A stretch of 64,000 bases of DNA from Acidimicrobiia bacterium (GTDB lineage: Bacteria; Actinomycetota; Acidimicrobiia; Spongiisociales; ZC4RG35): the NCBI GenBank assembly GCA_028285585.1, contig JANQOU010000013.1, forward strand, positions 1 through 64,000, written 5' to 3'. Both the position numbers and the translations under genes were made by a program. The notes below the pieces were generated by a model. It was not told where the DNA came from. It did not search any database and worked only from the letters and a program-made list of their open reading frames with translations. This document shows, piece by piece, positions 6,449 through 18,363 of this stretch (within the stretch, counting starts at the first letter, position 1; each line of letters begins with the position of its first letter).

Positions 6449-6495
6449 CGTGGGCCCTGCAGGACTTGAACCTACGACCTCTTGCGTGTCGAGCA
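6449..6495. repeat. Direct repeat copy 1: duplicated 3' part of tRNA-Val (putative att site)
   Basis: These 47 bases are identical to 7852-7898, which is the 3' part of the tRNA-Val gene from the anticodon loop to the discriminator base plus two flanking bases. Here the tRNA sequence stops after the anticodon loop and unrelated sequence follows, so it is a fragment and not a gene. A perfect copy of a tRNA 3' end at a distance is the usual mark left by an integrase using the tRNA as attachment site. Confidence 0.8.
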
Positions 6496-6579
6496 GGATC
6501 AGGACCGTTAGACCGAGTCTGACCGTTCGGACTAGCTAGCTACATTTCCGGGAACCGTACGAAACCCAGCGGGTGGCTA

Positions 6580-7518
6580 CTACAGGCCAGCCTTGTCCAC
6601 CCCGTACGTGGCCTGACTCTGCGTGAACCCCTCGAATAGCAGCTGGTCAATCAACCCGGAACGGGAGAAACTCGAGAACTCCAGGTACTCTTCGGCTTTC
6701 TTCCGGGCCTGATCGTTCCAGTCGACCGTTACAGAGTTGACAGCATGAGCAGCCTGGTTCGACGTGAACCCCTCAAACTCCAACTGCTTCGAAAGACCTG
6801 ACTTGGAGAAGGCCGAGGAGTCAAGATAAGACTCAGCCGAGAGACTCGCTTGCGCGTTCCAGTCGACCTCAAGATAATCCACAGCCAGGGCCGCCTCGGC
6901 ATTGGCGAAGCCCTCGAACTCCAATTGATCAATAAGGCCTGATCGCGAGAATGCCGAGAAGCTCAGATACGATTCAGCTGATGCTACGGCGTTCTCCTGA
7001 GATCGAGTGAACTGAGACGCTGAGGCTGAGGTTTCTGATGTCCGGGCCTCTGTGCCGTTGGACAAGGTGGCACCAGATCCACCATCGCCACCAAGTCCCG
7101 AAGCGATTTCAGAGAAGGTCTCTTCTACTTCACCGCTGCCAAGGCTTCCAACGATCGCTGACGCGACACCGACGGCCACAAGACCTAGGAAGCCGTAGAG
7201 CAACACCTTCCCAATCGAGAACCCTTTGGACGATTTGCTAGGAGACGGAAGGGATCTGGCTGCAACTTGGCCGGTCGACGGCGCTTCGGCTGACCGACTT
7301 GGACGGGTTTCACCTGTCCATTGTTGGCCATCCCAGTAGGCCTGATGTGACATCTGGCCGGATGGGTCGTTGTACCAACCCGGTGCCGTTGGTAATGACT
7401 CGTTCGACATGTCAGCAAGCAGATCGGCTTTGACAATGTCGTACTCATGTTGAGCTATGTCACCCCGTTCCAGCATCGCCTGAAGTTGCTTAAGGTCTTC
7501 GAACTTGCTCGACACCAA
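6580..7518 (-). CDS. Ltp-family repeat membrane protein with SHOCT-like and DUF2510 domains
   Basis: 312 residues. Residues about 5-37 form a short SHOCT-like helical pair (LERGDIAQHEYDIVKADLL). About 45-75 match DUF2510 (PGWYNDPSG, YWDGQQWT). About 103-127 is one transmembrane helix. A serine/threonine-rich linker follows, then three tandem copies of about 45 residues (roughly 175-312), each containing AESYL-like, FSRSGLI-like and QLEFEGF segments. These repeats are the Ltp-type 'host cell surface-exposed lipoprotein' domain. In Streptococcus phage TP-J34, Ltp blocks DNA entry of superinfecting phage. There is no lipobox; the helix would anchor the repeats outside the membrane instead. The start is TTG 7518 or GTG 7515, behind a GGGGGAGAG ribosome site. 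It is the only clear gene of the tRNA-Val island. A phage-exclusion role is inferred from family and location. Confidence 0.82.
   Translation of the reverse strand: MVSSKFEDLKQLQAMLERGDIAQHEYDIVKADLLADMSNESLPTAPGWYNDPSGQMSHQAYWDGQQWTGETRPSRSAEAPSTGQVAARSLPSPSKSSKGFSIGKVLLYGFLGLVAVGVASAIVGSLGSGEVEETFSEIASGLGGDGGSGATLSNGTEARTSETSASASQFTRSQENAVASAESYLSFSAFSRSGLIDQLEFEGFANAEAALAVDYLEVDWNAQASLSAESYLDSSAFSKSGLSKQLEFEGFTSNQAAHAVNSVTVDWNDQARKKAEEYLEFSSFSRSGLIDQLLFEGFTQSQATYGVDKAGL
7504..7515. repeat. Inverted 12-bp copy of the tRNA-Val anticodon-arm sequence at the ltp start
   Basis: On the minus strand the first codons of the Ltp-type gene read GTGTCGAGCAAG. The same 12 bases occur on the plus strand in tRNA-Val at 7889-7900. 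Copy 1 of the direct repeat at 6495 diverges two bases before the end of this word. It may be a relic of att-site shuffling or chance. Confidence 0.35.
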
Positions 7519-7596
7519 CTCTCCCCCTTGTCAACGTCACGAGCATACGACATCTGCCATAAGAACAGAGGACCATTCGAAGCGATCCTGCTGTTG

Positions 7597-7809
7597 ATGA
7601 GAATCGTTCAGGCTGGAGTTCTTGCGGCGTTCGCGATCGTTGCGAGCCAGGCGAATTGGCACTGGTGGGCCGAGTGGGGGTTGGCGACTGTCATGCTGCT
7701 AGTTCTCCTCGCACCGCTTCCGATGCACTTCCCGCAGAGAGACCCCATAGCAAGACATCCACTTCAACGCGTCTGCACTTTGATGCGATTCTGCCACTTG
7801 TGCAGTTAA
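7597..7809 (+). CDS. Possible small membrane peptide in the tRNA-Val island
   Basis: An open frame of 70 codons from the ATG at 7597. The product would have two hydrophobic stretches (VLAAFAIVAS and ATVMLLVLLAP) around a tryptophan-rich WHWWAEW turn, then a basic, cysteine-containing tail. It shows no recognisable family. There is no good ribosome site and no -10 element, and codon bias gives little support. The frame stays open upstream to an ATG at 7447, but that part overlaps the Ltp-type gene on the other strand. It lies between that gene and tRNA-Val, where accessory passengers are expected. Treat it as tentative. Confidence 0.3.
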   Translation: MRIVQAGVLAAFAIVASQANWHWWAEWGLATVMLLVLLAPLPMHFPQRDPIARHPLQRVCTLMRFCHLCS

Positions 7810-7851
7810 GGATCACACTGCGCGCGAAGAGGCGCCCTCATTGGATCTCTT

Positions 7852-7898
7852 CGTGGGCCCTGCAGGACTTGAACCTACGACCTCTTGCGTGTCGAGCA
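7852..7898. repeat. Direct repeat copy 2: 3' part of tRNA-Val (putative att site)
   Basis: Identical over 47 bases to 6449-6495. It covers the 3' part of tRNA-Val from the anticodon loop through the T arm and acceptor stem, plus two bases beyond the gene. Confidence 0.8.
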
Positions 7899-7927
7899 AG
7901 CGCTCTACCAGGCTGAGCTAAGGGCCC
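7854..7927 (-). tRNA. tRNA-Val (GAC)
   Basis: A 74-nt cloverleaf: acceptor stem GGGCCCT/AGGGCCC, D arm GCTC/GAGC, anticodon stem CTTGC/GCAAG with loop TCGACAC (anticodon GAC), T arm GTAGG/CCTGC with T loop TTCAAGT, discriminator A. CCA is not encoded. Its 3' 45 bases are the body of the 47-bp repeat, so this is the intact copy at the island edge. Confidence 0.95.
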
Positions 7928-8158: not shown

Positions 8159-8587
8159 CTACGAGCCGGTCGAGCCGAAACCACCGTCGCCGCGCTCGGT
8201 CTCGTCGAGCGAGTCAACCTCCTGCCACTCGATCGACGGCACCGGGACCACCATCAGCTGGGCGATCCTCTCCCCTCGCTCGAAACGAACCACATCATCA
8301 CCGTGGTTGATCAGCAGCACCGAGATCTCACCGCGGTATCCGGAGTCGATCAACCCGGGCCCGTTGACTACCCCGACACCCGAGCGCCGGGCATGTCCGC
8401 TCCGCGGAAGGACGAAACCAGCGTGTCCATCCGGTATGGCAACGGCCAGCCCGGTGGGCACGGCCTCGCGCTGGCCGGGCTCCAACTCGACGTCGACCCT
8501 GGCGTGAAGATCCACAGCGGCATCGCCGACATGGGCGGTCCTGGGAAGAGGTAGCTGGGAATCGAGACGAACGAAGTTAATCTGCAT
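8159..8587 (-). CDS. dut: Deoxyuridine 5'-triphosphate nucleotidohydrolase (dUTPase)
   Basis: Hydrolyses dUTP to dUMP and diphosphate, keeping uracil out of DNA and supplying dUMP for thymidylate synthesis. The 142-residue product is of trimeric dUTPase length and carries the five motifs: DAAVDL, PRSG, the [13 protein letters not shown] segment with the catalytic Asp, RIAQL, and the C-terminal arm [11 protein letters not shown]. Motif II reads PRSGHA where PRSGLA is usual. The start at ATG 8587 (MQINFVRLD) matches the family; upstream in-frame ATGs would add an unconserved leader. It stands alone on the minus strand, upstream of the tRNA cluster and divergent from the membrane protein gene at 8771. 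Confidence 0.93.
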
Positions 8588-8770
8588 GGTGTCGTGGGGC
8601 ATCGGGCGGGATGACGAAGCGACTGTAAGCGGGTCCAGCCCATGAGTGCCAGACATCTGAGACCGAAACGACGAAACACACGCAGACGCCGGTTTCGGCT
8701 CGTCTCCATGGAGTCCCTCGGCTTCATCGACAAGCCCGCTCAGGCGAGCACATGGGCGACATCGTCCACC

Positions 8771-9604
8771 ATGGTCAAGGAGTCACCCAGGGAACCAGCG
8801 CCACCCGAGCAGAGCGACCGCTTCTTCGAAGACTGGTCATCGGCTGAAGTCGGCAAGAAGTTGCACACCCGCAACATTCGCTGGGGAGTCATCCTCATCA
8901 CCATTCTCACGATTTCGTTGCTGGGCTTCGCCGGCTATTGGATCTACCAGCAGCCTGCTCGCAACGCCGCGGCCGCTGCCGAGAACCTCTCCGTTTCGGC
9001 TAATGCTCTCAGACCAGACGTCGCGGCCCTTCTCTCCCTCGACCTCACTACCGACTTCGAAGCCGTGGTTGCCCTGCTGCCCGCCACGGAGCAGAACGCC
9101 AGAGACCTGTTCAACACCTCCGGAACCTTGCCCTCGTCAATGGGCAGTGATCGCTTGCTGGCCGCTGACGCCGCCGGTGAGGTGCTCGAGGCCGCCCGCT
9201 CACTGAACGACGCTTACAGCTATCGAGCGGCTGTCATACCGATCTTGGCTCTTCCCAACCTCGAGACCGACCCGGCGCTCATCGAGCTGGAAGAAGCGGC
9301 ACAAACCTTCAGCACGTGGCAGGCCAAGTTTGTGAACACCTCAGACTCGCTCCCGACCGGCACCATGGGTGCAGTCGGTGAGTCGCTCCTCGAGTTCGCC
9401 CCGACACTTGCCGACACGCAACGCACCTACTTGGACGCTCTGCGCGAGAACGACCCGGCGACAGCCGCTTTGGTGGTATCCGGATTGACCGAAACGCTCG
9501 GCAGCTTCGAGGCTCTGCTCGAATCGACGATGACTCAGGTCGCCGCCGAGGCTCGCGAGCAACTCGAAGCAGCAGACTTCGGGCTCTCCCAGCTACTCCG
9601 CTGA
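8771..9604 (+). CDS. Single-pass membrane protein of unknown function
   Basis: 277 residues from the ATG at 8771. The first 35 residues are charged and proline-rich and probably cytoplasmic. One transmembrane helix follows (about 38-58, [14 protein letters not shown] core). The remaining 220 or so residues are extracytoplasmic, helical, alanine-rich and acidic with no cysteine, and suggest a coiled or four-helix bundle. No family is recognised. The frame is open upstream to an ATG at 8642 with a very basic leader; none of the candidate starts has a convincing ribosome site. The last 12 bases overlap the end of convergent nrdR. Confidence 0.6.
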
Positions 9605-16227: not shown

Positions 16228-18363
16228 CTACTCCTCTTGTGAGGCTGGCTCCTCGGTGAGGTCGACTTCCTCCTCTTCGGCAGTGCTCATGCCCACCGCT
16301 TCGAACACCTTGGCCTGGAGCTGCATCGCCAATTCGGGATTTTCCCGCAGGAACCGCTTCGAGTTCTCTCTTCCCTGGCCAAGCTGATCCTGATCGAATG
16401 TGAACCAGGCCCCGCTCTTGCGCACCACACCGTTGTCAACGGCTACATCGAGAAGGCTTCCCTCGCGTGAGATGCCTTGGCCGAACATGATGTCGAACTC
16501 GGCTTGACGGAACGGTGGGGCCATCTTGTTCTTGACCACCTTGACCCGGACCCGGTTCCCGACATTGTCGGTGCCGTCTTTGATGGCCTCGATGCGCCGG
16601 ATGTCGAGCCGAACCGACGAGTAGAACTTGAGGGCGCGGCCACCCGGTGTTGTCTCAGGTGAGTTGTGAACCATCACACCATCGACCAGGTAGTTGTGAT
16701 GACCTTCGACTTCGATATCGAAGCGCCTCATGCTCCTGGTCTTGGGTTTGACGTGAATGTCGACGATCGGCACAGCAGCCAGCTCATAGCGCTCTTCGGC
16801 TGGCTCGACTTCAACCGCTTCCTTTCCTCGATGATGTCGAAGCAGTTTGTAGGCCATGCAATCGGGCACATAGGGAGCGATCAGGTCGTGCAGAGCCTCG
16901 GTGCCGTCTTTGTCGAAGACGATCAAGGCCTTTCCGCCGCGTTCCGTCAGCTTGCAGCTCAGCCCATAGGTCTCCTTGAGGGTGGCAGCGAGCCGTCGTT
17001 GCGATCCCTTCTCCATCGCCTCAACGACGATGTCAGAGCGGCCGGCCGACCCGTCCTTGCGGCGCTCGGCAAAAGTGCCGTCATCCATGTACCAAACGGC
17101 CAGGGCGAATGGGGTCAGCGCCTTGAGATAGTCCCAACTGAACACCTTCTTGCCACCGATGTAGACCGACTCCCGCAACTCATCGAGCTCTGCCAACGGA
17201 GTGGTCTCGACCATCAGCCCACCCTTGCTGTGAGGTGAGATCGAAAGCGGTACCCCATCAAGGAGGCTGGCTTTCCACTTGGCGTAGTCGTCCTGCTTTG
17301 GCCCATGGCCAAATCGGAACCGCGACTTCATCCCGGAACCATGAGAGTTGGGTCTCTTTGGTGATACGGACCCATCGCCCATCAGGCCGCCGAGCACAAG
17401 CTCTCGTTGCTGACCGGACAGATAGTGCTTGAGGGGCATCAAAACCCGGTCACCCTTGATCAGCTCCCCGGCCTCTCGCCACCCTCCCGGTGTTGAGATC
17501 AGGTGGTTGGCTGTAGCGGCGAACTGAGCACGACCGTTGCCCTCAGGCTTGTAAACGGTGAACTGGAGGAACTCGTCGATGTTCCCGTTGTCGAACCAGT
17601 TGACAATCTTCTTCGGCTCCACTTTTCCGGTGTCGGGGTCGACCGCCATCACCTCGACATCCATCTTCTGATTGACGATCTTGCCGATCTTCTCCTGAGT
17701 GCCATCGGCGAGAGTCACGCGAGTCGAGTACTGGAAGCAGCCGAACATCACCCCTATCTTCTCGCGCAGCTGGTTGATGAAGATGGCAGTGGTCTTCGAC
17801 TTGTTCAGCGTGCCGGCGAGCTTGCGCAATGCCTGGGACATGAGACGTGCTTGGAGGCCGACATGAGCGTCACCCATCTCACCCTCGATCTCGGCGCGTG
17901 GGACCAGTGCGGCCACCGAGTCGATGACAACTACATCGAGAGCGCCGGAGCGGATCAACATGTCGGCGATCTCGAGCGCCTGCTCCCCGGTGTCGGGCTG
18001 CGAGATGAGCAGCTCGTCGACGTCGACACCGATCGCCTTGGCATACACCGGGTCGAGAGCATGCTCAGCGTCGATGAAGGCGGCGATGCCGCCGTTGCGT
18101 TGCGCCTCGGCGACGATGTGCAGCGACAAAGACGTCTTGCCCGAGCTTTCCGGGCCGTAGATCTCCACGACGCGGCCCCGAGGAACCCCGCCGATGCCGA
18201 GGGCGAGGTCCAGTGACAACGCCCCGGTGGGGATGATGTCGAAACTTCTCTGAGCGGCCTCCCCCATCTTCATGATGGCGCCTTTCCCAAACTGCCTCTC
18301 GATCTGACTGACCGCCATGTCGAGTGCCTTATCGCGTTCCACTTCGCGTCCTTCCTGACTCAT
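16228..18363 (-). CDS. recA: RecA recombinase precursor with in-frame intein
   Basis: RecA catalyses strand exchange and activates LexA self-cleavage. The 711-residue precursor is a normal 352-residue RecA split by a 359-residue intein. N-extein: residues 1-208 with Walker A GPESSGKT (about 70-77), ending at the MFG of loop L2. C-extein: residues 568-711, resuming [10 protein letters not shown]. The ATG at 18363 follows the hexamer TACGGT by six bases, and an SOS box lies 49 bases upstream, so transcription is LexA-controlled. The spliced protein should be fully active. No recX follows. Confidence 0.97.
16663..17739 (-). mobile_element. RecA intein (RecA-b site) with LAGLIDADG homing endonuclease
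   Basis: 359 residues inserted between Gly208 and Ser568 of the precursor. It starts [14 protein letters not shown] (nucleophile Cys1; block A) and has an HLI block B near residues 79-81. A LAGLIDADG endonuclease domain follows, with two helices ending GGLMGDG (about 117-123) and VWYMDDG (about 215-221). The end is [14 protein letters not shown] (blocks F and G) with C-terminal Asn359 and a +1 Ser. All splicing residues are present and both LAGLIDADG acidic residues (D122, D220) are kept, so splicing and homing both look intact. The insertion site and sequence resemble the M. leprae RecA intein, not the M. tuberculosis one. Confidence 0.93.

What the first reader, a model, noticed from the sequence alone, without database searches (positions are those of the whole stretch)
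6449..7898. 1.4-kb tRNA-Val mini-island carrying a phage-exclusion-type gene but no integrase
A 47-bp perfect duplicate of the tRNA-Val 3' part brackets a segment whose only clear gene is an Ltp-repeat membrane protein. Ltp proteins of phages such as TP-J34 block DNA injection by other phages. A defence-type cargo with almost nothing else suggests either the last remnant of a prophage or a minimal passenger that borrows an integrase.
Basis: partly seen in the sequence, partly recalled or inferred. Interest (0 to 1): 0.75.

Follow-up and report, generated by a model that had tools for sequence, protein, structure and literature searches.

The report
Integrase-less mini-island in a tRNA-Val gene
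A 1.4-kb piece of foreign DNA sits in a valine tRNA gene that phages and islands of related bacteria often enter; it has kept both boundary marks and one gene resembling known phage-blocking proteins, but has lost or never had its own integration enzyme, so it is most likely a stranded remnant of a mobile element.

Summary
The 47-bp exact repeat is the 3' part of tRNA-Val(GAC), displaced by 1,403 bp. It starts at the anticodon stem-loop, a usual crossover site for tyrosine integrases. The enclosed DNA is foreign: it has the lowest G+C of any 1.36-kb stretch of the window, and Ltp-domain genes occur in only 12 of 395 genomes of the class. No integrase or integrase remnant lies inside, and the genome holds only XerC/XerD-like recombinases and one broken integrase elsewhere. 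The same tRNA is an integration hotspot: eight relatives carry islands there with other cargo (0.49-11 kb), some with an intact integrase, others with only its C-terminal stump. A virus contig carries an integrase plus this attachment core. Elsewhere in the class, several Ltp genes sit beside integrases or 3' of tRNAs. The best reading is a stripped, CIME-like remnant whose Ltp gene was retained; a passenger using another element's integrase is possible but undemonstrated. The protein has the TP-J34 Ltp fold but no cysteine, so it cannot be a lipoprotein; a transmembrane helix takes that role. Phage exclusion is inferred from homology only. The kind is known; islands this small and integrase-free are excluded by the Islander survey's filters.

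The parts
7853..7927 (-). tRNA-Val(GAC), restored target gene (att site on the tRNA side)
   Evidence: ARAGORN; Rfam tRNA match
7852..7898 (-). 47-bp core repeat, copy inside the intact tRNA gene
   Evidence: the repeat finder, 100% identity
6449..6495 (-). 47-bp core repeat, displaced 3' tRNA fragment (distal att site)
   Evidence: the repeat finder; begins 5 nt 5' of the anticodon as in other elements at this tRNA
6496..7851 (.). island interior, G+C 0.560, lowest of all 1.36-kb stretches in the window (mean 0.623, sd 0.015)
6580..7518 (-). Ltp-domain membrane protein, 312 aa: helical N-terminus with a weak, below-cut-off SHOCT-like match, DUF2510, TM helix, serine-rich spacer, three Ltp repeats; no cysteine
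   Evidence: Pfam, PHROG 'superinfection exclusion' E=1e-58, AlphaFold model and PDB 4eqq match
7597..7809 (+). 70-aa hydrophobic ORF, divergent from the Ltp gene; no homologue found, gene status doubtful
   Evidence: ORF list; no Pfam, PHROG, PADLOC or NCBIfam match

Best explanation
A mobile element entered the tRNA-Val(GAC) gene by tyrosine-integrase recombination in the anticodon loop, restoring the tRNA and pushing the old 3' part 1.4 kb downstream. Its integrase and other mobility genes were then lost, leaving both att cores and one retained cargo gene. That gene encodes an Ltp-repeat protein anchored by a TM helix with its repeat domain outside the cell, where by homology it would block DNA entry of other phages. 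Shown: site signature, foreign composition, patchy distribution, hotspot with graded decay in relatives, absence of an integrase. Inferred: the order of loss, retention by selection, membrane topology, and phage exclusion.
For: tRNA plus displaced 3' fragment in the same orientation. The repeat starts at the anticodon stem-loop in G000 and in the elements of eight relatives at the same tRNA. Island G+C is 4 sd below the window mean. Ltp domains occur in only 12 of 395 genomes of the class, in 12 different genera. The host has two XerC/XerD-like genes and one integrase with a stop at tRNA-Ile, nothing at tRNA-Val. At the same tRNA, G037 has a 7.4-kb island with an intact integrase frame; its congener G050 has a 4.07-kb island keeping only the last 30 aa of that integrase (87% identity); G002 has a 0.49-kb island holding just an integrase C-terminal piece; G086 keeps an integrase stump beside its fragment. 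A virus contig carries integrase plus this core. Ltp genes lie directly beside integrases in G025 and L101 and beside weak integrase fragments in G222.
Against: No integrase trace is left in this island, whereas G050, G002 and G086 keep a stump. The 47-bp fragment is still perfect, so the insertion is either young or the fragment is kept identical somehow; a young insertion leaves less time for decay. No full-length parent with this Ltp gene at tRNA-Val was found.
Confidence: 0.72

Rival explanations
1. Minimal passenger: a one-gene unit with an att core that moves in and out of tRNA-Val using integrases of phages or islands that share the site, much as a gene cassette uses an integron integrase.
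For: Three integrase-free mini-islands with unrelated single cargo genes occupy the same tRNA in three genera: Ltp in G000, a 153-aa membrane ORF in G012 (0.64 kb), a CHRD-domain protein in G013 (2.5 kb), each gene in the tRNA's orientation. In G013 it sits next to an integrase domain at the shared att. A virus contig brings an integrase plus this core. The core in G000 is perfect.
Against: No cargo was seen at tRNA-Val in two genomes; no Ltp unit at tRNA-Val in the other searched genomes of the order. The G013 integrase frame is short (230 aa). The host has no intact integrase for the site. Decay explains small size more simply.
Confidence: 0.17
2. No mobile element: a local duplication or gene conversion of the tRNA 3' end flanking a resident host gene.
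For: Only one recognisable gene lies inside and there is no integrase.
Against: Anomalous G+C, rarity of Ltp in the class, duplicates in eight other genomes with the same 5' boundary around different cargo, and integrases beside several of them.
Confidence: 0.03
3. The Ltp protein is an ordinary cell-envelope protein with no role against phages, and the island is a neutral relic. (This concerns the gene's function and can hold together with the remnant reading.)
For: The DUF2510 and TM architecture differs from phage Ltp lipoproteins; Ltp-domain genes also occur in genomes of Firmicutes, other Actinobacteria and methanogens; no PADLOC match.
Against: Best PHROG matches are 'superinfection exclusion', the fold matches TP-J34 Ltp, many Gordonia phages carry relatives, and several Ltp genes in the class sit beside integrases or tRNAs.
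Confidence: 0.35

Closest known systems
tRNA-gene genomic islands catalogued by Islander (PMC4383910)
   Same: Intact tRNA plus displaced 3' fragment in the same orientation bounding foreign DNA; anticodon-centred crossover, one of its main classes
   Different: No integrase and only 1.4 kb; Islander's filters reject islands without integrase and those under 2 kb
CIME, cis-mobilizable element (PMC5704250)
   Same: Keeps both att sites, lacks integration and transfer genes; relatives at the same site form tandems as in accretion
   Different: Origin from an ICE or IME not shown; no integrase-bearing neighbour in tandem in this genome; mobilization not shown
Ltp of Streptococcus thermophilus phage TP-J34 (PMC3952083; PDB 4eqq)
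   Same: Ltp repeat fold and a serine-rich spacer before the repeats
   Different: No cysteine, hence no lipid anchor; TM helix instead; N-terminal DUF2510; three repeats rather than the two aligned in 4eqq

Membership tests
tRNA-gene genomic island (Islander signature) | Intact tRNA gene plus displaced 3' fragment in the same orientation on its 3' side | tested here: met
tRNA-gene genomic island (Islander signature) | Integrase gene inside the island | tested here: not met
tRNA-gene genomic island (Islander signature) | Length 2-200 kb | tested here: not met
   1,403 bp; threshold from PMC4383910
CIME (cis-mobilizable element) | attL and attR retained | tested here: met
   47/47 identical cores
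CIME (cis-mobilizable element) | No integration or transfer genes | tested here: met
CIME (cis-mobilizable element) | Derived by decay of an ICE or IME | tested here: inconclusive
   decay series at the same tRNA in relatives but no direct parent found
CIME (cis-mobilizable element) | Can be mobilized by an element integrated in tandem | not testable with these tools
   needs an excision or transfer assay; no tandem integrase in this genome
Ltp superinfection-exclusion proteins | PF07553 repeats above Pfam cut-off | tested here: met
   142 bits against cut-off 23.2, three stretches
Ltp superinfection-exclusion proteins | Fold of TP-J34 Ltp | tested here: met
   4eqq: Foldseek probability 1.00, TM by target 0.83-0.84; VIA Z 13.6, rmsd 1.5 over 98 residues. 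RecX structures score as high, so sequence match 1.7e-7 is the stronger evidence
Ltp superinfection-exclusion proteins | Lipid anchor (lipobox cysteine) | tested here: not met
   no cysteine in the 312-aa translation; helix 104-120 in the model
Ltp superinfection-exclusion proteins | Blocks phage DNA injection | not testable with these tools
   bench assay needed

The most novel reading that the evidence does not exclude
tRNA-Val(GAC) in this order works as a receiving dock for single-gene cassettes that carry only an att core and are inserted, excised and exchanged by integrases of visiting phages and islands, an integron-like exchange without a resident integrase; the Ltp unit would be a defence cassette of that pool.
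Probability: 0.12. Interest if true: 0.75.

Novelty: new member of a known kind. Interest (0 to 1): 0.36.

Why it matters
Surveys of tRNA islands such as Islander discard islands without integrase or under 2 kb, so the smallest end of the island spectrum goes uncounted. This site shows that end directly: at one tRNA gene, across several genera, islands range from 11 kb down to 0.5 kb with intact, partial or no integrase. What survives longest at such a site, here a surface protein of a phage-exclusion family, bears on how hosts may keep defence genes from mobile elements. If such units still move with borrowed integrases, they would be among the smallest site-specifically mobile gene units.

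Tried and rejected
Exact 28-30-nt versions of this genome's own core in viral contigs: no hit; a version of the relatives' core gave one virus contig. Relatives of the Ltp gene in viral contigs: 5 distant loci, screened only for integrases with tblastn (none). Integrase remnants in the island: only chance-level alignments. Imperfect tRNA-fragment duplicates next to the other tRNA-linked Ltp genes: none above shuffled background except a weak one in G221 (17 of 20 nt), so those are not shown to be bounded islands. Enrichment of Ltp genes near tRNAs over 75 Ltp loci of many phyla: few tRNAs nearby, not convincing; within the class, 4 of 11 other genomes have a tRNA within 2.6 kb with the gene on its 3' side (P about 3e-4 using this genome's tRNA density, but the distance was chosen after seeing the data). 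An empty site with both flanks conserved was not found: of the left flank only the methyltransferase was seen, and only in G012, where it lies next to tRNA-Val(CAC). G049 also matched the core twice, but both copies are full tRNAs at contig ends, so it was not counted as an island. Promoter and terminator scans gave nothing above background.

Full report
Observation. The repeat is real and exact: 47 nt at 6449-6495 and 7852-7898, 1,403 bp apart. The second copy is the 3' part of tRNA-Val(GAC), 7853-7927 on the minus strand, in a tRNA-Val/Cys/Gly cluster. Together they form the standard signature of DNA inserted into a tRNA gene: intact tRNA, insert, displaced 3' fragment in the same orientation. 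The best other match to the tRNA 3' end downstream scores 11, shuffled DNA 9-13, this copy 45 of 45. Among the stretches read downstream of the genome's tRNAs no other tRNA has an exact 3' copy.

Contents. The insert has G+C 0.560; every other 1.36-kb stretch of the 64-kb window that was sampled is higher (mean 0.623, sd 0.015). Its one clear gene, 6580-7518 on the minus strand, codes for 312 aa with three PF07553 repeats and a DUF2510 domain. The best PHROGs are annotated superinfection exclusion, and PDB 4eqq, the TP-J34 Ltp, matches by sequence (1.7e-7). The AlphaFold model of the repeat region has pLDDT near 97 and aligns to 4eqq at rmsd 1.5 over 98 residues; RecX proteins align about as well, so fold alone is not decisive. 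The translation has no cysteine, so unlike TP-J34 Ltp, which has a lipid anchor, a serine-rich spacer and a repeat domain (PMC3952083), it cannot be lipidated; a helix at residues 104-120 is the likely membrane anchor, followed by a serine-rich spacer. A 70-aa hydrophobic ORF on the other strand (7597-7809) has no relatives in the libraries searched.

No integrase. Integrases from seven related sites gave only chance alignments inside the island, and an HMM built from nine integrases found nothing in the window's first 20 kb. The genome, 96.85% complete by the tool's estimate, has three PF00589 matches: two XerC/XerD-like genes and one with an internal stop beside tRNA-Ile.

Relatives. A core-pattern search found the tRNA-Val(GAC) 3' part in 63 of 137 genomes of the order, 54 of them with one copy. 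Eight other genomes carry a displaced copy attributable to the same tRNA, counting G002, whose copy is too diverged for that pattern and appeared only with more mismatches allowed. Island sizes: G002 0.49 kb, G012 0.64 kb, G013 2.5 kb, G050 4.07 kb, G037 7.4 kb, G079 11 kb, and G025 and G086 split over contigs; in G013 the full tRNA itself lies off the contig. In all of them, as here, the repeat begins 2-7 nt before the anticodon, matching the anticodon-centred site class of Islander. G037 has an intact integrase next to the tRNA and G025 has one too. G050, of the same genus as G037, keeps only the last 30 aa of that integrase at 87% identity. G002 keeps just a C-terminal piece, and G086 keeps a stump. 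G012 and G013 hold single cargo genes with no integrase inside; the G013 unit borders an integrase domain across the shared core. Virus contig L203 has an integrase ending about 260 bp from this core, with phage structural genes on the far side.

Ltp elsewhere. In the class, 12 of 395 genomes have the domain, each in a different genus. In G025 and in L101, the latter with the same DUF2510 plus Ltp architecture, the gene lies beside an integrase. In G222 it lies beside weak integrase fragments. In G008, G124, G221, G315 and L101 a tRNA lies within 2.5 kb, with the gene on its 3' side. In the remaining genomes neither was seen. This fits a gene that often travels with integrating elements.

Interpretation. 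A mobile element integrated at the anticodon loop, then lost its integrase and other genes, leaving two att cores and an Ltp gene with an intact frame. The decay series at the same tRNA is the main argument. Against it, this island has no integrase stump, and its core is perfect, suggesting a recent event. The alternative, a one-gene passenger moved by another element's integrase, is supported by three such units with unrelated cargo at one tRNA, but no unit was found twice and no movement was seen. Phage exclusion is an inference from family and fold.

Comparison. The closest categories are tRNA islands as defined by Islander, which this fails on integrase and length, and CIMEs, whose structural features it meets while origin and mobilization remain untested. 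It is a small member of a known kind, not a new kind.

Noticed in passing
window 7853-7927; L045, L049, L050, L051, L052, L054, L197, L198, L199: tRNA-Val(GAC) in 12 genomes of the family including this one has loop UCGACAC or CCGACAC, i.e. C33 where nearly all elongator tRNAs have U33; other genomes of the order have CUGAC or UUGAC loops. The loop is also the integrase crossover, and virus contig L203 carries the C33 version of the core.
   Followed up: partly
L045 11908-16755 (G012): Next to its tRNA-Val mini-island G012 carries a 4.7-kb island in tRNA-Cys(GCA), bounded by an exact 47-nt 3' fragment, with only an integrase C-terminal piece left at 16452-16643; G013 has a full-length integrase frame beside the same tRNA-Cys.
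   Followed up: partly
L084, near 8497-9586 (G000 C4, beside tRNA-Ile(GAT)): This genome has a decayed integrase of the G037 type, its frame broken, next to tRNA-Ile; no tRNA-Ile fragment was found downstream.
   Followed up: partly
L191 (G079), between 4628 and 15699: An 11-kb island at tRNA-Val(GAC) shows no PF00589 integrase in its contig; contents not examined.
   Followed up: no
L101 53-3371: Ilumatobacteraceae contig end: integrase C-terminal domain, DUF2510-Ltp gene, a lipoprotein-like ORF and tRNA-Ile(GAT) within 3.4 kb; possibly a relative of the element that brought Ltp here.
   Followed up: partly
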